Shown here in pieces: positions 4,497-46,227 of a stretch of 64,000 nucleotides of DNA (its first letter is position 1; every line of letters starts with the position of its first letter). This DNA comes from Limisphaera sp. GTDB taxonomy: Bacteria > Verrucomicrobiota > Verrucomicrobiia > Limisphaerales > Limisphaeraceae. Both the position numbers and the translations under genes were made by a program. The DNA lies in contig JANWVC010000003.1 of assembly GCA_025057755.1 (NCBI GenBank), positions 418,289-482,288 of the forward strand, read 5' to 3'. Under the pieces are notes generated by a model. The model was not told the origin of the DNA. It saw only the letters and a program-made list of their open reading frames with translations, and did not search any database.

Positions 4497-6316
4497 TTAC
4501 TCGATGTTTGGCAAAGCCTCCCATGGCGGCACTGTGTAAACCCCGATGTCGTCAAACCAGGTAATTTCATCTGGCATCTGCCGCACTTCCAGCAAGAGCA
4601 CGAGTTCATCTGCGTCCTGGGGCACTTGAATGATGTCGCAGGCACGCCGCCAGCCGGATCGATCGTGCTCCGTAAAACGGATACGGGGTTGGGTTAAAGA
4701 CCAGTTCCATTGACCTGCTCGTTTCCATCCAATCCGCACCCATGCGGACGCGCCCCGAGCATGGACTTCCACAATGAATCGCGGATGATGCCGTGCGGGT
4801 ATTATGGTAGCAAGGCACCCTTTTTACACGCCGGAGGCACAGAGGGCACCCGGTCGCGAGCGACCCACACGCGAGTCCGCGTAGAACGAACCTGTGCGGA
4901 CGGACGGCGGTTGCCATGTCCACCAACCCTGGGGAGGGCGATCCGGTCGTGGAAGTTCGTGCTTGGGTCCCGAGTAGCTGGAGTGTAACAGCCGTTAGCC
5001 AGAAGGTTCGTGAGTTGGCCTGCCAGTCGCCGGTGCGCCAAGAAATTCCGAGCCCAGTCGCGTGGGTTTTCACTGACGGCCAATGCGTGCACGAATCCCG
5101 GGAGAGCTTCAGCCCATGTGCCCCGAAAGGCGCGGCTGGAAAGCTCCCACGCAATCCAATTGCGCGGTTCTCCCTATAAACCAGACGCAGGCATCGGCCA
5201 CATGGGTTGCAGCACAGAGATTGGCGAAGAAACGGTTCAAACGAGAACCGTTCAATTCGCGAAAGCACCAAGAGGAGTTGGGAGGATTGATATACATGTC
5301 GAGGTAGAGTCCAAAGCCGCCTTGGACCTGAGTGGAGGGGGCCCTGTGATGATACGGATCCACAAGGGTTCGCGCCGGACCGCACACTCGCCAGGCCGGC
5401 CGATGAAAGTCATTCCGCCCTGCGTCGTAGCGGTAAGCATGCTCATCGCCGTCTACCAAATCGGCGCTCACAGGCAAAGCGTCGAGCATTCCGTTGAAGA
5501 AAGCAGGCCCTAGCACTCCGTCCCCCGCAGCGGCGGCTACAGGGTCTGGTTCCTCGAGGTATTCTCGGTAAGCGCTCAGTCACCAGAAGCTGAGGACGGT
5601 GAGATCGGGATATTCGGCAGTCATCGCAGACATAATCTGGCGTCCGCGCCGGCGCGCCAATGCCTGGAGTTCAGGCCAAGGCGGATCACCCCGCAGCCGT
5701 TGAAACTGTCGGCTCTCGTGGTAATCTCTGGATCGACCATCACCCCAATGGCATGGCCCTGACGCGCGAGCCGGGCTAAGACGGCATGGTTGGAAGCTAC
5801 CCGTGTCCAAGCGGAATCATCGGTCCACGATAAACGCTGTTTGGGTGACCAGAAAGCGATGAAGAAATTGTGCCGAAGCGTCCGGGAAGCACAGGCCCGA
5901 AGGGCCGGCAGCTCATTGGTAAACCAATCAATCCGCCAGACTGGATCTCTGAGAAGCGTAAGGCTGCTGAGTTCCGTTCCGTCTGGGTGTTGACTACGAA
6001 CGACCAGTGCAACTCCATCAATCGGCAGACGGGTCCATTGATCGAGATGTCGGGCGACGTCGGAGGGTTGCGCGGCCAGAAGGTCCCATCCGTGCGCAAT
6101 CAGACGAGTTTCAGGCGGTCCTGCGGCAACAGGCATCACGTAGGAAACCGAAACCCGCCTAGTGAACTCATTGCTGATCCGACGCAAGCATGGAATGCCA
6201 AGAGAGGCGCGACATCCATTCATGTTCGCTCCCATGTCACTTACTCGAATAGCCGCTGCGTGTCCCGGACAGAAGTAGTTTGCGTGAGCCTCAGGGTAAA
6301 AAATGCCGCGAGCCAA
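4497..6316 (-). pseudogene. Frameshifted remnant of a large secreted protein, possibly carbohydrate-active
   Basis: Consecutive minus-strand pieces in different frames join into one protein-like text: 6316 to about 5740 (RLIAHGWDLLAAQPSDV, LPIDGVALVVR, HNFFIAFWSPKQRLSWTDD, VLARLARQGHAIGVMVDPE), 5810-5580 (ESRQFQRLRGDPPWPELQAL, ALARRRGRQIMSAMTAEYPD, LTVLSFW), 5516-5109 (FFNGMLDALP, DGDEHAYRYDAGRNDFHR, QVQGGFGLYLDMYINPP), 5092-4802 (HALAVSENPRDWARNFLA) and 4772-4497 (DELVLLLEVRQMPDEITWFD, DIGVYTVPP). This matches my memory of a hypothetical family of about 600 residues in Verrucomicrobiota and Lentisphaerota with a C-terminal carbohydrate-binding-like domain; I do not know its function. At least four frame changes are needed, so it cannot be expressed as one protein. 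The exact N-terminus is unclear because the region upstream of the first motif no longer looks like a signal peptide. Confidence 0.7.
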
Positions 6317-40682: not shown

Positions 40683-40738
40683 TTGACAATCTTGGGCTTC
40701 GGGATACTGTTCGTATGAACAGTTGTTCATATGAACAG
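40683..40738 (+). promoter_or_regulatory. lexA promoter with two overlapping LexA-operator-like palindromes
   Basis: A -35 box TTGACA (40683-40688) is followed after 16 bases by TACTGT (40705-40710) as a possible -10. Two palindromes overlap and follow it: CTGTTCGTATGAACAG (40707-40722, one mismatched pair) and the perfect 14-mer TGTTCATATGAACA (40724-40737). They share the half-site core GTTC-N4-GAAC and their centres are 16 bases apart. The first covers the -10 and probable transcription start, the second covers the first ATG of lexA. This fits autorepression by LexA. The palindrome differs from the E. coli CTGT-N8-ACAG spacing rule only in its inner bases, and from the Gram-positive GAAC-N4-GTTC box in half-site order. 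Confidence 0.8.
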
Positions 40739-41363
40739 CATGCTCAAGTTAACTCCGCGACAGCGGGAAGTTCTGGAATATGTGGCCACCGCTCAGCAAG
40801 AACGGGGCGTGGCGCCCACGTTACGGGAAATCGCAGCCCATTTCGGTTTCCGCAGCATGAACGCCGCTGCAGCCCATATCCGCGCCCTGCGGCGGAAGGG
40901 TTTAATCAAGGTCGAGCCGCATCGAGCCCGCAGCTTGCGATTAGTGCAGCCCGGCTGGGTCCGAAAACCTCTGGCCCACATCCCCCTTTACGGATCGATC
41001 CCTGCGGGGTTTGCAGAAGATCGAGTCCAGGAAGCTCGCGGATGCCTTTCAGTGGACATGGATACATTGGGACTGGACCTGCGGCCGAACCCGCGGCTGT
41101 TCGCTCTGGAGGTCCGGGGCGATTCCATGATCGGCCGACACATCTTGGAGGGAGACATTGTTATCTTGGAACATGGGCGCACTCCGCGCCCCGGTGACGT
41201 GGTAGCAGCTTTGATTGACAATGAAAGCACGCTCAAGACGTTTGTCTTGGTGCGAGGCAAACCTTGTTTGCGAGCCGAGAACCCAAAATATCCCGATCTC
41301 ATCCCGGCTGCCGAACTGGTGATCCAAGGGGTAATGATCGCCTTGATTCGCAAAGTCAAGTAA
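40731..41363 (+). CDS. lexA: LexA repressor
   Basis: This 210-residue protein is the SOS repressor. The N-terminal winged helix (LTPRQREVLEYVATAQQERG, PTLREIAAHFGFRSMNAAAA, HIRALRRKGLIKVEP) recognises DNA. The self-cleavage site is Ala92-Gly93 (GSIPAGFAED), the catalytic serine is Ser132 (VRGDSMIG) and the lysine Lys169 (ESTLKTFV), so it should be cleavable by RecA nucleoprotein filaments. The ATGs at 40731 and 40740 are both possible starts; neither has a Shine-Dalgarno site, and the first lies inside the operator, so the leader is very short. The gene is followed 187 bases later on the same strand by the polymerase fusion, with no operator-like palindrome in between, which suggests one SOS-controlled transcript. 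Confidence 0.95.
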   Translation: MNSMLKLTPRQREVLEYVATAQQERGVAPTLREIAAHFGFRSMNAAAAHIRALRRKGLIKVEPHRARSLRLVQPGWVRKPLAHIPLYGSIPAGFAEDRVQEARGCLSVDMDTLGLDLRPNPRLFALEVRGDSMIGRHILEGDIVILEHGRTPRPGDVVAALIDNESTLKTFVLVRGKPCLRAENPKYPDLIPAAELVIQGVMIALIRKVK

Positions 41364-41550: not shown

Positions 41551-44500
41551 ATGGAACGGTGGATCGTCCATTTGGATGCTGATGCCTTCTTTGCCTCGGT
41601 GGAACAAGCGGCAGATGTGCGGCTCCGCGGCCGGCCCGTGGCCGTGGGAGGACAAAGACGAGGCGTCATTGCCAGTGCCAGCTACGAGGCGCGCCGGTAT
41701 GGCATTCACACATCCATGCCCACCGCGCTGGCGCGCCGTCTATGCCCGCATTTGATTGTGTTGCCGGGAGATTTTGAGAAGTACGAGCGTTTTTCCCGGT
41801 GGATGTTTTCTTATGCTTACGACTTCACACCCGAGGTAGAGCAGACCTCCATCGACGAGGGATATTTGGACGTGACCGCATGCCGGAGTTGTCCACCTGT
41901 GGAAGTTGCCCAGCGGCTGCGGCAGATCATCCGGCAAGCGCTTAAGCTCAGCGTCAGTGAGGGTCTCGGCAGCAGCAAGTTGGTCAGCCAAATTGCTGCC
42001 AAACTGCACAAACCGGCAGCCTTTTGCACCGTGCCGCCCGGTCGGGAGACCGATTTCCTTCATCCGCTGCCCGTCCATTGGCTGCCCGGTGTGGGGCCCC
42101 AAACGGCCCCACGGCTGCGCGCGGCTGGCCTTTACCGCATCTGGCAAGTGGCAGCCACGCCGCCCGAGCAACTGGAGCTACTGGTGGGTAGCAAAGCGTT
42201 CGAGTTGCATCGCTTCGCTCGGGGCCTGGATGATCGACCCCTGATTCCACAAAGCCTGCCACAGCAAAGCTACCAGCAACAGATGACCTTTGATCAGGAT
42301 TGCACGGATGAGCTCTATGTCGCGGCCGTGTTACGACAAATGGCCGATACACTGTTTGCACGGGTCCGCGCCGAAGGCCGCAGCGTGCGCACCTTTACCG
42401 TAAAAGTGACATATTCCGACATGGCCGAGGATCGGGCTGCCGAAAGTTTGGAAGAGCCCACCGCGGTGGAGACCGTGATTTACAGCCGATTGGATGGATT
42501 ACTGCGGCGCGCTTGGCAGCGCCGGGTGGCCCTGCGCCGCGTGGGCCTCAAACTGTCGGACATTTATGACGGGATCTGGGATGCGCCCCTGCCATTGACT
42601 GCCGAGGCACAACGACAGGCCGCTTGTCATCGTCTGGCGCGGGCCGTGGATGAATTGCGGCACCGGCTGGGGCCTTCCGCGCTTCTGCGAGCTCATGACC
42701 TGCAACTGCGCGATTTCTCATACCCTGCAGCATTTCGGCGGGTGTCCTCGCGTGTCCACCTGCTGGCCCGCCCGTCCGCGCGGGAGTTTTTCATCCATCG
42801 GACACACCCGGTGTCCACGCCCTCTCCTCGGCTCCCGTCGGTTGGCTCCCCTCTCATTCTGTCGCGGACACAGGCGGCACCTCCCTACATACCTTTGCGG
42901 GTGCGCAGTTGTTACTCGTTCCTCGACTCCACATTGACCCCCGCTGCCATCGTGGCAATGGCACAACAGTATGAATGTCCGGCAGTGGCCCTGGTAGATC
43001 TGGGCAACTTGCACGGTGCAGTGGCTTTCACCGAGGCAGCTCTTCAGGCCGGTATTCAGCCGATCTTGGGGGCGGAGATTCCACTCGAGGGATCGCCGCT
43101 CCTACTCTATGTGGAATCCGCGCAGGGCTATGTCAACCTTTGCCGCCTGCTTTCGGATCGATCGGAGTCCAGCCTTTCCCACCTCACCGGGCAAGGAACC
43201 GGCAAAGGCGGACCGGTGGAGGCAGAACATTCAACGGCACCCGATTCCGAAACCGTTTCCGGCCAGAGCGTAGTCCACCGACAACGAAGGAATCGCACCC
43301 GAGAGGAATTGGAAGGCCGCACGGAGGGTTTGATTGCCGTGTCTGCTGATCCTCGCTGGGCGGATCTCTTTCCCGGCCGGTTTTACCGGGCCATTGCCAA
43401 TCGTCTCCATCCGGAGTCCCATACGGAAGCGGCCTTCGCGTTGTGTCCACCGATTCACTATGGATCTCCAAAAGATCGGCAATTCTACGAGGTCCTCCAA
43501 TCCATTCGGACCTGTACCCTTGTAGGGCGGTCGCATCCGCGGAAGCGTTCGGGAGGATCACTTCATTTTCGATCTCCTGCCGAAATGGATCAGCTCGGCC
43601 ATGGATTCGGAAATTGGCGGGCCGTGGCCGAGGAAATCGCCGCGCGCTGCCAATTCACACTGTCGCGAAGGCAGCCTCAATTCCCACCGTACCACCCACC
43701 CGAGGGCGGCTCACCCGGCGCATTCTTACGACGACTAGTAGAAGAAGGTTTGCATAGGCGTTACGGCCGGCGCGGCGCCTGTACCCCGCAAGGTCGACGC
43801 ATCAGCCTTGAAGAGCTGCATGTCCGGGTAGAGGAAGAACTCAACGTAATCGCAGCCGTAGGATACGAAGAATATTTCCTGATCGTGTGGGAACTATTGG
43901 AACGATGCCGGCGCCGTGGCATTGAGTGGATCACCCGCGGGAGCGCTGCTGATTCGCTGGTCTGTTACTGCCTGGGCATCAGCAATGTTTGCCCCGTACG
44001 GTTTGGCCTCTATTTCCGTCGCTTCCTCAACCTGGAACGCATGCAGATGCACAAGCTGCCGGACATTGACGTAGATTTTCCCCATGACCGGAAAGATGAA
44101 GTCGTAGCCGATCTGCTCCAACAGTACGGCCCGAATCATGCCGCCGTGGTGGGCGGTTTTTCCACCTTTCGCGTCCGAGCTGCCGTAGCCGAGGTGGCCA
44201 AAGTTTTGGGCACACCGGAAGGAATTGTGCGTCGATGGACCGAACGGCTTCCTTGGAGCCTGGGCGGGGAGCAGCCTTATGCCGGAACCCTCCCCCATGA
44301 AGCCGAATTGGGTGAGGATTCGCCCTGGGTGGAACATTTGCGTTCCTTGCCCGAATGTCGGGATATCCCGTTGGAGGAAGAGCCCCTCCGCACGGCTATC
44401 GCGCTGGGCGCACGCCTGGCAGGTTTACCTCGTTACCCCAAAATGCACCCCTGTGGAGTGGTGCTTTCCCGACAGCCAATGATGGAATTGACCCCCACCT

Positions 44501-46227
44501 TTCGCTCCGCCAAGGGCTGGCCCACCACTCACTTCGACATGGACGCTGTCGAGGCCGTGGGGCTAGTCAAACTGGATTTGCTAGCCCAGGGCGGTCTTTC
44601 CGTCTTGCGCGATGTCAAAGCCAACTTGAACGCACGCGGCCTAGTGGTAGACCTGGAACGTTTCACCGTGCAAGGCAAACCGATCGCCCCGGACGCATCC
44701 GCTACAGTATGTTCCCGATTGTCCTCCATTTCAGAGGCCTCCTTTGACGACCGCCGCGTTTGGACTATGATCGCCAACGGCAACGCCCGCGCGGTCCATC
44801 ACATCGAATCACCAGCCATGACCTCCCTCTGCCGCATGAGTCAGGTGCATGACATCGAAGGACTCATCGCCCTGGTGAGCGTAATCCGACCAGGCGCCGC
44901 CAACGAACAAAACAAGCTGCGTTTCACCCGCCGTTATCAGGGCATGGAGCCGGTCACATATCCTCACCCCATCCTGGCTGAATGCCTCGGAGACAGCTGG
45001 GGACTGGTCCTCTATGAGGAACATGTCTTGCTCATCTGCGAACGGTTTGCCGGTTTGTCTCCAGGTCGGGCCGATCAATTGCGCCGAGCCCTGAGCCGGG
45101 GGCAGATGCCCTTGGTAGACGCCATCGGACAGGAGTTTTGCCAGTCTGCTCGTGCTCGCGGCCATCCGGAAGAAGTGATTGCAGCGGTCTGGGCCATGGT
45201 GCGGGGATTTGCTGGCTACTCCTTCTGCAAAGCTCACAGCACAGCTTATGCAGTGGAGGCTTACCAGTCCGCTTGGTTGAAATGCTATTTCCCCGCCGAG
45301 TTCATGGCGGCCGTGCTCACCCATGGCAAGGGATTCTATGACCCGCTGGTCTATGTGCTGGAGTGTCATCGCATGGGAATCCCCTTGCTCCGGCCGGATG
45401 TAAACCGGCCCGGTCCGTCATTCGAAGTGGAGCATCATCCCCATCCTGCCATCCGGGTTCCCTTGACCCAGCTCAAAGGGCTGACCGAACCCACTCGAGA
45501 TCGGCTCTTGAGCGAAAGCAATCGAGCTCCTTTTGTTTCCCTCGCTGATTTCTATGAACGGGTTCGCCCTCTGCCGGAAGAGTTGGAAGCCATGATCCGC
45601 GTGGGGGCCTTTGACGGATGGGGTCTCTCCCGGACCGACCTGTTTTGGGAAGCGCAACGCTTGATTCGTCGTTTCTCATCTCCCGCCTTTCCTACCCAAG
45701 GATGGTTGTTTCCCGAATGGGCGCCAGGTGGAAACGCTCCTCGCCCCGACTTTCCTTCCTCACGCGCCCTTTTGCAGCAACCCACCCTGCAAGAACGGCT
45801 AGCAGACGAACTGGAATGGCTCGGATTTCCCGTCAGTGCCCATCCCTTGGCGTTGCACTCTCACGTGGCCTGGGAGACATATTGCCCCGTAGCCTGTCTG
45901 GCAGAACACAGGGGTCAACGGGTCACCACTTGCGGCCTGGTGGTGGAACAACGAATCCATCACCAACTGACGGGTGAACCCATGAAATTTCTGACCCTGG
46001 CTGACTGGACCGGGATGCTGGAAACGGAACTGTTCGCAGCCTCCTACCGACATTACGGTTCCGCCACCGTTCGATATCCCGTGCTGGAAGTGACCGGTAC
46101 TGTGGAACCTTTCGAAAATGGGCTCGGCTACACTCTGCGCGTAGAGCACGCCGGTCCTCCTCGCCAACGCACCCAGCCTGCTGAGAGGACCCTGCTTCAC
46201 CCACCGCAATGTCCTCCCAGCGGTTAA
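41551..46227 (+). CDS. Fused Y-family (DinB-type) and C-family (DnaE-type) DNA polymerase
   Basis: One uninterrupted 1558-codon frame encodes two polymerases. Residues 1 to about 410 are a complete DinB/Pol IV-like enzyme: VHLDADAFFASVEQ with catalytic Asp9, TSIDEGYLDVT with Asp102-Glu103, a Phe at the steric-gate position, the helix-hairpin-helix WLPGVGPQTAPRLRAAGL and a little-finger domain (RTFTVKVTYSDM, LRRVGLKLSDI). After a linker of about 35 residues, residues about 447-1558 are a DnaE-type alpha subunit: a PHP domain whose metal ligands are altered (LRVRSCYSFLD, VDLGNLHGAV), RGSAADSLVCYCLGI, the catalytic LPDIDVDF (Asp840, Asp842) and VKLDLLAQGG (Asp1009), a finger region (FCKAHSTAYAVEAYQSAW) and a C-terminal OB fold (GLVVEQRIHHQLTGEPMKFL). 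Unlike ImuB it keeps all Y-family catalytic acids. Position behind lexA suggests SOS-induced translesion synthesis. Confidence 0.92.
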   Translation: MERWIVHLDADAFFASVEQAADVRLRGRPVAVGGQRRGVIASASYEARRYGIHTSMPTALARRLCPHLIVLPGDFEKYERFSRWMFSYAYDFTPEVEQTSIDEGYLDVTACRSCPPVEVAQRLRQIIRQALKLSVSEGLGSSKLVSQIAAKLHKPAAFCTVPPGRETDFLHPLPVHWLPGVGPQTAPRLRAAGLYRIWQVAATPPEQLELLVGSKAFELHRFARGLDDRPLIPQSLPQQSYQQQMTFDQDCTDELYVAAVLRQMADTLFARVRAEGRSVRTFTVKVTYSDMAEDRAAESLEEPTAVETVIYSRLDGLLRRAWQRRVALRRVGLKLSDIYDGIWDAPLPLTAEAQRQAACHRLARAVDELRHRLGPSALLRAHDLQLRDFSYPAAFRRVSSRVHLLARPSAREFFIHRTHPVSTPSPRLPSVGSPLILSRTQAAPPYIPLRVRSCYSFLDSTLTPAAIVAMAQQYECPAVALVDLGNLHGAVAFTEAALQAGIQPILGAEIPLEGSPLLLYVESAQGYVNLCRLLSDRSESSLSHLTGQGTGKGGPVEAEHSTAPDSETVSGQSVVHRQRRNRTREELEGRTEGLIAVSADPRWADLFPGRFYRAIANRLHPESHTEAAFALCPPIHYGSPKDRQFYEVLQSIRTCTLVGRSHPRKRSGGSLHFRSPAEMDQLGHGFGNWRAVAEEIAARCQFTLSRRQPQFPPYHPPEGGSPGAFLRRLVEEGLHRRYGRRGACTPQGRRISLEELHVRVEEELNVIAAVGYEEYFLIVWELLERCRRRGIEWITRGSAADSLVCYCLGISNVCPVRFGLYFRRFLNLERMQMHKLPDIDVDFPHDRKDEVVADLLQQYGPNHAAVVGGFSTFRVRAAVAEVAKVLGTPEGIVRRWTERLPWSLGGEQPYAGTLPHEAELGEDSPWVEHLRSLPECRDIPLEEEPLRTAIALGARLAGLPRYPKMHPCGVVLSRQPMMELTPTFRSAKGWPTTHFDMDAVEAVGLVKLDLLAQGGLSVLRDVKANLNARGLVVDLERFTVQGKPIAPDASATVCSRLSSISEASFDDRRVWTMIANGNARAVHHIESPAMTSLCRMSQVHDIEGLIALVSVIRPGAANEQNKLRFTRRYQGMEPVTYPHPILAECLGDSWGLVLYEEHVLLICERFAGLSPGRADQLRRALSRGQMPLVDAIGQEFCQSARARGHPEEVIAAVWAMVRGFAGYSFCKAHSTAYAVEAYQSAWLKCYFPAEFMAAVLTHGKGFYDPLVYVLECHRMGIPLLRPDVNRPGPSFEVEHHPHPAIRVPLTQLKGLTEPTRDRLLSESNRAPFVSLADFYERVRPLPEELEAMIRVGAFDGWGLSRTDLFWEAQRLIRRFSSPAFPTQGWLFPEWAPGGNAPRPDFPSSRALLQQPTLQERLADELEWLGFPVSAHPLALHSHVAWETYCPVACLAEHRGQRVTTCGLVVEQRIHHQLTGEPMKFLTLADWTGMLETELFAASYRHYGSATVRYPVLEVTGTVEPFENGLGYTLRVEHAGPPRQRTQPAERTLLHPPQCPPSG

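What the first reader, a model, noticed from the sequence alone, without database searches (positions are those of the whole stretch)
41551..46227. A single gene fusing an active DinB-type translesion polymerase to a complete DnaE-type replicative polymerase
Seen: one 1558-codon frame without stops contains a full Y-family polymerase (Asp9, Asp102, Glu103 present) and a full C-family polymerase (Asp840, Asp842, Asp1009 present) joined by a linker of about 35 residues. Known: in many bacteria SOS mutagenesis uses separate ImuA, ImuB (a catalytically dead Y-family protein) and DnaE2 proteins. Inference: this protein would physically hold a lesion-bypassing inserter and an extender together, a one-piece mutasome without need for ImuA or ImuB. 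I do not know of a described DinB-DnaE fusion. The DnaE part has a PHP domain with altered metal ligands, so it probably lacks proofreading of its own.
Basis: partly seen in the sequence, partly recalled or inferred. Interest (0 to 1): 0.93.

Follow-up and report, generated by a model that had tools for sequence, protein, structure and literature searches.

The report
Two damage-bypass polymerases in one protein
Right behind its DNA-damage switch gene lexA, this Verrucomicrobiota bacterium carries one gene that joins two complete DNA polymerases end to end, an architecture found in more than two hundred related proteins; it is predicted to copy past DNA damage as a single-chain mutation machine, where related systems use separate proteins.

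Summary
Window 41551-46227 (+) is one open frame of 1558 aa: a Y-family polymerase, a linker predicted to be disordered, and a C-family polymerase. It is not an assembly error: 120 of 120 and 118 of 120 listed homologues in two searches carry the same fusion, including named Prosthecobacter species. The catalytic carboxylates of both halves are kept in 236-237 of 237 long homologues. Trees of both halves fit one fusion, later split in a few genomes. lexA lies upstream (33 of 35 distinct loci), with a conserved SOS-box palindrome at its start.

The reading needs changes. The C-family half is DnaE2-type by tree, with 3 of 9 PHP metal ligands left, not a replicative DnaE. The Y half is not plain DinB: it has a RecA-NT-like tail (modest statistical support) and no clamp pentapeptide of its own (0 of 237); a clamp-like motif sits only in the DnaE half. 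It is the genome's only Y-family gene.

Best reading: a covalently fused variant of the DnaE2B-PolY-RecA kind of mutasome. The paper searches I ran showed no description of such a fusion, although one NCBI record name already calls it fused. All function is inferred.

The parts
40683..40688 (+). -35-like hexamer TTGACA, 16 nt before TACTGT (40705-40710), so the SOS box would cover the -10 position
   Evidence: read in the sequence; the consensus scan did not report it; TACTGT matches TATAAT at only 3 of 6
40705..40724 (+). predicted LexA operator (SOS box) TACTGTTCGTATGAACAGTT, ending 6 nt before the lexA ATG
   Evidence: score 21.6; best of 660 shuffled upstream regions 13.3; 27 of 33 homologous lexA upstream regions (26 of 32 distinct) score above that maximum (the matrix was trained on these regions)
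40721..40740 (+). second, overlapping palindrome AGTTGTTCATATGAACAGCA across the lexA start
   Evidence: score 13.4, borderline against the shuffles
40731..41363 (+). lexA, SOS repressor; 187 nt before the fusion gene
   Evidence: TIGR00498 143.6 bits, cut-off 110.95; Peptidase_S24 and LexA_DNA_bind; upstream in 33 of 35 distinct loci
41551..46227 (+). PolY::DnaE2 fusion gene, 1558 aa
41572..42003 (+). Y-family catalytic core (IMS, residues 8-151); D9 at 41575-41577, D102-E103 at 41854-41859, steric-gate position F14
   Evidence: PF00817 151 bits; conservation
42265..42564 (+). little-finger domain (IMS_C, residues 239-338)
   Evidence: PF11799; pLDDT 85-93 in the blocks 241-340
42604..42714 (+). 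RecA-NT-like tail (residues 352-388), predicted RecA contact
   Evidence: aligned with the tails of UmuC and Bacteroidota PolY; profile match of 352-380 to the RecA N-terminus, 5 of 1000 column shuffles as good, none at that place
42700..42870 (+). linker between the two polymerases (residues 384-440), predicted disordered
   Evidence: pLDDT under 50
42895..43203 (+). PHP domain (residues 449-551 by Pfam), degenerate metal site
   Evidence: 3 of 9 ligands kept
43723..44586 (+). C-family polymerase core (residues 725-1012); D840 44068-44070, D842 44074-44076, D1009 44575-44577
   Evidence: PF07733 213.7 bits; conservation
44728..45159 (+). C-family finger domain (residues 1060-1203)
   Evidence: PF17657
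45376..45639 (+). helix-hairpin-helix region (residues 1276-1363)
   Evidence: PF14579
45697..45711 (+). predicted clamp-binding pentapeptide QGWLF (residues 1383-1387)
   Evidence: aligned with E. coli alpha QADMF and Verrucomicrobiota DnaE1 QSSLF/QGSLF; column Q 128 of 237, L 206 of 237; full pattern Q..[LM][FL] 105 of 237
45919..46155 (+). C-terminal OB-like beta region (residues about 1457-1535)
   Evidence: beta strands in the model; no Pfam match

Best explanation
The gene encodes one 1558-residue chain in which a Y-family polymerase with all its catalytic residues is joined to a DnaE2-type polymerase with all its catalytic residues and a degenerate PHP nuclease site, and it likely works as an SOS-induced, RecA-assisted mutasome in which the first half would insert opposite a lesion and the second half would extend. 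Shown in sequence: the fusion, both catalytic sets, the lost PHP ligands, the lexA neighbour with a conserved SOS-box palindrome, no clamp pentapeptide in the Y half but a clamp-like motif in the DnaE half, one clade of fused proteins in both trees. Inferred: LexA cleavage switches on the lexA-polymerase operon; the RecA-NT-like tail docks on RecA as proposed for UmuC and other PolY proteins; the clamp holds the whole chain through the DnaE half; the 3' end passes in cis from the Y site to the DnaE site; no proofreading follows.
For: Fusion conserved. Catalytic residues of both halves 236-237 of 237. PHP ligands: 0 to 5 of 9 kept in 237 proteins, most often 2 (112 of 237); own DnaE1 9 of 9. 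The DnaE half lies apart from five DnaE1 rows (SH-aLRT 100) and with the Bacteroidota and Desulfosarcina DnaE of PolY-DnaE operons (96; 80, with two long-branch rows in). lexA upstream on the same strand in 33 of 35 distinct loci. SOS-box dyad TACTG-N10-CAGTA in 12 of 33 lexA upstream regions, mean 0.0 in shuffles. RecA-NT-like tail and one recA gene. The fusion is the only Y-family and one of two C-family genes found in the genome. The DnaE-half model (pLDDT 81.9, pTM 0.81) matches solved PolIII alpha structures best.
Against: No experiment. Pairwise, the DnaE half is as close to DnaE1 proteins (29-32%) as to DnaE2 references (25-29%; Desulfosarcina 34%, G004 41%), and the best NCBIfam model is a general DnaE one; DnaE2 placement rests on the tree with few references. 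The RecA-NT match is modest: reversed RecA columns score 23.8 elsewhere against 23.9; the 120-member profile was weaker (14 of 300 shuffles as good); the 37-column profile did not pick RecA out of decoys; 112 of 237 members lack the motif's glycine column, and the profile of the second set (P0241-P0360) alone matches RecA over 7 columns only. The full clamp pattern in the DnaE half is in 105 of 237. Two genomes keep both halves as separate closed frames (G339, G358), and G354 shows lexA-PolY with no DnaE half seen, so one chain is not indispensable. Lone PolYs of the same order (L088-L090) already lack the Q of the clamp motif, so its loss need not be tied to the fusion. The Y palm is poorly modelled. 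Genome 93.8% complete.
Confidence: 0.7

Rival explanations
1. Two independent enzymes made as one chain: each half works on its own substrates (Y half for lesion bypass, DnaE half for gap filling or extension of other ends), and the fusion only fixes their dose and co-regulation.
For: G339 and G358 carry both halves as separate genes, nested inside the fused clade; the linker is predicted to be disordered and varies from 30 to 165 residues.
Against: The fusion persists over much of the order and in other lineages; the Y half has no clamp pentapeptide (0 of 237), which fits dependence on the DnaE half.
Confidence: 0.17
2. The DnaE half is the sole working mutator and the Y half serves mainly as a tether to RecA and DNA, as catalytically dead ImuB does.
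For: Same pairing of parts as ImuB with DnaE2; AlphaFold models in PMC12926913 (section 19) have ImuB docked on DnaE2.
Against: Y catalytic residues are kept in 236-237 of 237 and the steric-gate position is F or Y in 236 (230 F, 6 Y, 1 gap), unlike the two ImuB rows aligned here.
Confidence: 0.1
3. Assembly or frameshift artefact joining two neighbouring genes.
For: One relative (G353, 57% complete) shows a frame break near the end of its Y half.
Against: 238 of 240 listed protein clusters carry both domains in one protein, on contigs of up to 2.0 Mb; 52 of 156 genomes of the order have the long frame.
Confidence: 0.01
4. A back-up replicative polymerase rather than an SOS mutator.
For: The best NCBIfam profile is the general DnaE model PRK05673 (583.9 bits, under its cut-off of 1002); pairwise identity to DnaE1 is no lower than to DnaE2.
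Against: A separate DnaE1 with an intact PHP site is in the genome; PHP site degenerate; lexA neighbour with SOS box; tree.
Confidence: 0.03

Closest known systems
DnaE2B-PolY-RecA putative mutasome of Bacteroidota (Timinskas and Venclovas 2019, PMC6511836; Timinskas et al. 2026, PMC12926913)
   Same: Active-looking Y-family polymerase with RecA-NT tail plus active-looking DnaE2 with degenerate PHP, without ImuA or ImuB. Reference gene pairs fetched here: Adhaeribacter, Emticicia, Chryseobacterium, Persicobacter.
   Different: There two separate genes, Y protein with a QxxLF clamp motif (QIDLF and the like). Here one chain and no clamp pentapeptide in the Y half (0 of 237). DnaE halves 27-29% identical.
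ImuA-ImuB-DnaE2 mutasome
   Same: SOS-controlled cassette pairing a Y-family protein with a DnaE2-type polymerase (PMC6511836 passages).
   Different: ImuB is catalytically dead and has an ImuB-C domain; ImuA is a separate RecA homologue. Here the Y half keeps its catalytic residues, the genome has no other IMS match and only recA matches the ImuA model, below cut-off (weak control).
Desulfosarcina ovata plasmid operon lexA-DUF72-PolY-DnaE (L076)
   Same: lexA followed by Y-family and DnaE genes in one row; DnaE 34% identical.
   Different: Separate genes; its Y protein has Asn at the first catalytic Asp.
DNA polymerase IV (DinB)
   Same: The Y half passes one Pol IV model (PRK02406, 259.0 bits against cut-off 256).
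   Different: E. coli DinB has no RecA-NT tail and ends in its clamp motif; here the reverse. PMC12926913 (section 16) says that DinB-like PolY-core proteins are mixed for the tail, most lacking it.
NCBI record named 'fused DNA polymerase IV/DNA polymerase III subunit alpha [Verrucomicrobia bacterium]' (P0054)
   Same: A member of the same family, 57% identical over 99%.
   Different: A database name only; my paper searches showed no functional description.

Membership tests
DnaE2B-PolY-RecA mutasome | active-looking Y-family polymerase (catalytic carboxylates) | tested here: met
   D9, D102, E103 in 236-237 of 237
DnaE2B-PolY-RecA mutasome | RecA-NT motif after the little finger of the Y half | tested here: inconclusive
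   right place and pattern; 5 of 1000 shuffles as good, none at that place, but the reversed control scores alike elsewhere; glycine column missing in 112 of 237
DnaE2B-PolY-RecA mutasome | clamp motif QxxLF in the Y half | tested here: not met
   pattern Q..[LMI][FL] in residues 336-361: 0 of 237
DnaE2B-PolY-RecA mutasome | DnaE partner of the DnaE2B branch | tested here: inconclusive
   next to Bacteroidota DnaE2 in the tree (SH-aLRT 96, 80; few references); Streptomyces DnaE, DnaE2B in PMC12926913, groups elsewhere on a long branch
DnaE2B-PolY-RecA mutasome | degenerate PHP site in the DnaE partner | tested here: met
DnaE2B-PolY-RecA mutasome | genome without imuB | tested here: met
   the fusion is the only IMS match (genome 93.8% complete)
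DnaE2B-PolY-RecA mutasome | genome without imuA | tested here: inconclusive
   only the recA locus matches, below cut-off; no control genome over cut-off
DnaE2B-PolY-RecA mutasome | separate subunits from separate genes | tested here: not met
   one frame
DnaE2B-PolY-RecA mutasome | physical complex with RecA | not testable with these tools
   no complex prediction offered
ImuA-ImuB-DnaE2 | catalytically dead Y-family protein | tested here: not met
   catalytic residues kept
ImuA-ImuB-DnaE2 | ImuB-C domain | not tested
   no further Pfam family was reported on the fusion, but ImuB-C was not searched for as such
ImuA-ImuB-DnaE2 | imuA gene | tested here: inconclusive
   with the caveat on its control
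replicative DnaE1 | placement with DnaE1 in the tree | tested here: not met
   pairwise identity does not decide
replicative DnaE1 | intact PHP site or a DnaQ partner | tested here: inconclusive
   PHP 3 of 9, not met; DnaQ not tested
DNA polymerase IV (DinB) | Pol IV profile over cut-off | tested here: met
   PRK02406 259.0 against 256; the other Pol IV models listed stay under their cut-offs
DNA polymerase IV (DinB) | C-terminal clamp motif | tested here: not met
   0 of 237

The most novel reading that the evidence does not exclude
A twelfth kind of bacterial mutasome: inserter and extender polymerases in one covalent chain, with the clamp contact kept only in the DnaE half, so that a single RecA contact and a single clamp contact load and switch the whole machine and the lesion-containing 3' end is handed over in cis. 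In several hosts (the window's genome and, for example, G298, G343, G344, G384, G402) it is the only Y-family gene seen.
Probability: 0.5. Interest if true: 0.78.

Novelty: new variant of a known kind. Interest (0 to 1): 0.66.

Why it matters
In the mutasomes described in the papers I read, the partners are separate proteins, so how the damaged end passes between them, and in what ratio they act, is hard to study. A natural fusion fixes the ratio at 1:1. Natural splits of the same protein in relatives (G339, G358) give a built-in control for whether handover in cis matters. The family is recorded in named Prosthecobacter species (P. fusiformis, P. vanneervenii, P. fluviatilis, P. dejongeii), which to my recollection are cultured, so it could be tested. 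It also warns that pipelines name the same protein PolC, Pol IV, DNA polymerase III alpha or error-prone polymerase.

Tried and rejected
Assembly error: rejected. Viral origin: no support. The IMG/VR scan rested on two short peptide patterns and gave one distant DnaE match (26%); of 1314 phage records with a match none covers 80% of the query. Plasmids: the search stopped at 5000 records; 4 have a place covering 80% of the query, of which the two I fetched (H3, H4) are neighbouring separate genes, not fusions. SOS regulon by pattern: TACTGT-N8-ACAGTA with up to 2 mismatches gave 28 forward places in the own genome against 78 for the backward control, so pattern counting alone is uninformative; the one other place with 1 mismatch lies inside a threonyl-tRNA synthetase-like frame (named by recall of the sequence). 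recA: no box in the fetched recA locus (best 6.3). The matrix was trained on the same regions that it scores, so only the dyad search is unbiased. Motif profile of 37 columns against RecA and decoys: RecA -1.5, decoys up to 4.6, so that test failed. Structure of residues 1-1200: pLDDT under 50 in 25-47, 54-79, 82-105 and 129-142 of the Y palm, no inference on docking of the halves; Foldseek finds Y-family folds for it at rmsd of about 16-20 only. Two long-branch DnaE rows (L012, L029) were in the first DnaE tree and left out of the second; ten fused rows were dropped from both DnaE trees for time, and three fused rows (L116, L117, L038) from all trees because my splitting pattern missed them. 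The one-clade tests were made after the trees had been seen. Three of 240 proteins under 1200 aa were left out. Papers: the listings of searches show no title or abstract start on such a fusion; I opened three papers only. Of PMC12926913 I read the outline with abstract, sections 14, 16, 19 and 24 and passages; of PMC6511836 section 15 and 12 of 16 passages; of PMC8565304 passages. Supplements could not be opened, so a fusion listed there would have escaped me. The paper on the Verrucomicrobia LexA motif (doi 10.3389/fmolb.2016.00033) is not held and was not seen.
Full report
What is there. The frame 41551-46227 (+) is real and complete: 1558 residues, ATG to stop. Pfam places a Y-family core and little finger in residues 8-338 and a C-family polymerase with PHP, core, fingers and HhH in 449-1363. 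NCBIfam gives DnaE models (PRK05673 583.9 bits, under its cut-off; TIGR00594 530.2 bits, over its cut-off) and Pol IV models (PRK02406 259.0 bits, just over its cut-off). PDB sequence searches match Pol IV/Dbh-type proteins for the first half and PolIII alpha for the second. The genome (3.63 Mb, 34 contigs, 93.8% complete) has one Y-family match, this one, and two C-family matches, this one and a DnaE1. Among the five loci of a pattern-limited scan the closest is a Limisphaera sp. contig, 80% identical in its best segment, residues 808-1542 matched.

It is a family, not an accident. The 120 listed of 1362 homologues all carry the six Pfam families in one protein. A second search from a distant member (G187; P0241, listed as Prosthecobacter fusiformis, is 100% identical and on a contig of the same length) gave 118 of 120 listed with both PF00817 and PF07733, among them P. 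vanneervenii, P. fluviatilis, P. dejongeii and a Chthoniobacteraceae genome. In 156 genomes of the window's order, 140 have a Y-family match and 52 have it inside a frame of 1300 aa or more (my count of listed rows). In 288 genomes drawn from the phylum (the window's own and 287 outside its order) the listed matches show the fusion in the window's own and in G187 only (list cut, at most two candidates scored per genome); two other genomes with G187's genus code show no such match. The distribution is patchy.

One fusion, a few splits. In the Y tree the 32 fused rows form one clade with three rows from genomes where the halves are apart (bootstrap 100, SH-aLRT 99); holding the 32 together without those is rejected (p-AU 6e-6). 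The DnaE tree agrees for the two split genomes in which the DnaE half was found (p-AU 3e-5). Both tests were made after the trees had been seen. In G339 and G358 both halves are closed frames on different contigs; in G354 only lexA-PolY was seen. The simplest reading is one fusion and later splits; changes on a tree (4 at least on the Y tree) cannot strictly tell gain from loss.

Both sites look alive, the PHP site does not. In 237 homologues over 1200 aa, D9 is kept in 236 (1 gap), D102, E103, D842 and D1009 in 237, D840 in 236 (1 gap). Of nine PHP ligands the window keeps three (RRDLEPDPH); the family keeps 0 to 5, most often 2; this genome's DnaE1 keeps all nine. In the tree the DnaE half lies apart from five DnaE1 rows (SH-aLRT 100) and joins, with 96, the DnaE of Bacteroidota PolY-DnaE pairs and of a Desulfosarcina plasmid operon; in the first tree, with two long-branch rows, that join had 80. 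Its closest separate relative here is a lone DnaE in G004 (41% identical). Pairwise identity alone does not separate DnaE1 (29-32%) from the other DnaE2 references (25-29%). The DnaE-half model is good (pLDDT 81.9, pTM 0.81), and its best Foldseek matches are PolIII alpha chains. The Y palm is poorly modelled in my shallow alignment, so for that half the evidence is sequence only.

The parts that matter for how it works. After the little finger, UmuC, Bacteroidota PolY and lone PolYs of another Verrucomicrobiota family (L092-L094) have a clamp pentapeptide and then a segment of the RecA-NT kind described in PMC6511836 (section 15 and passages read). The fusion keeps the second (R380, H382, D383 in 237 of 237) but not the first (pattern Q..[LMI][FL], 0 of 237). 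Lone PolYs of the same order (L088-L090) have xLPLF without the Q, so the decay may have begun before the fusion. A family profile matches the N-terminus of RecA at residues 352-380; 5 of 1000 column shuffles score as high, none at that place, but reversed columns score almost the same elsewhere, and 112 of 237 members lack the motif's glycine column, which is present in 120. I therefore call the RecA contact predicted. A pentapeptide QGWLF stands in the DnaE half exactly where E. coli alpha has QADMF; its Q is kept in 128 of 237, its L in 206, the full pattern Q..[LM][FL] in 105. So the clamp contact, if any, seems to be kept only in the DnaE half.

Regulation. lexA lies upstream on the same strand in 34 of 36 loci with at least 750 nt of upstream sequence (33 of 35 distinct, since L038 and L055 are the same locus; three of the 36 are genomes with the Y half on its own, and in two the fusion runs off the contig). 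The exceptions are L096 (fused) and L099 (split); in L105 the gap is 1.9 kb. Upstream of lexA a dyad search found TACTG-N10-CAGTA in 12 of 33 regions and a mean of 0.0 in shuffles. A matrix trained on these regions scores 29 of 33 (28 of 32 distinct) at 12.9 or more, and 27 of 33 above 13.3, the maximum of 660 shuffles; the shuffles' 99th percentile is 11.3. The window has a site at 40705-40724 over the expected -10 position, with an overlapping second palindrome (borderline score) across the lexA start. No box was found at the recA locus. I infer one SOS-induced lexA-fusion transcript; the 187-nt gap here is longer than in most of these loci.

Placing it. The 2026 census of bacterial polymerases (PMC12926913; outline, sections 14, 16, 19 and 24 and passages read) lists 11 mutasome types from over 3000 species with complete genomes; none in the text I read is a fusion of the two polymerases: 'fusion' does not occur, and 'fused' occurs twice for other proteins. 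The nearest type is DnaE2B-PolY-RecA of Bacteroidota, two active-looking polymerases in two genes. This find would work like that type but fails two of its features tested here (separate subunits; clamp motif in the Y half). I file it as a new variant. The annotators of one NCBI record already wrote 'fused DNA polymerase IV/DNA polymerase III subunit alpha' (P0054), so the join as such has been seen; the listings of my paper searches show none that treats it.

Noticed in passing
homologues P0006, P0007, P0008, loop at about window residue 1297 and the inter-polymerase linker: Long in-frame insertions, some of which look like translated palindromic repeat elements (for example '...AGFQPAV...NRQGAGR...AGWKPAI...' in P0006), sit in variable loops of the fusion in some relatives; several genomes show frames of about 1580-1800 aa with a break in the match at this place.
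   Followed up: no
G187, G190, G199: Three genomes with the same genus code: only one shows the fusion, so it may be lost or gained often.
   Followed up: no
L107 (G354): lexA followed by a lone PolY of the fused clade, with no DnaE half seen in that genome's listed matches.
   Followed up: partly
L105 (G393): A 1.9 kb gap lies between lexA and the fusion gene, unlike the other loci.
   Followed up: no
L108 (G353): Frame break close to the end of the Y half in a 57% complete genome; described only.
   Followed up: no
L076 (Desulfosarcina ovata plasmid): Row of genes lexA-DUF72-PolY-DnaE; the Y protein has Asn for the first catalytic Asp, so it is probably inactive, and its annotated start looks too far downstream.
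   Followed up: partly
G381, contigs C31 and C41: One genome with two long fusion genes.
   Followed up: no
L098 (own recA): No SOS box was found near recA although lexA has one clear and one borderline box; the SOS regulon of this genome may be small.
   Followed up: partly
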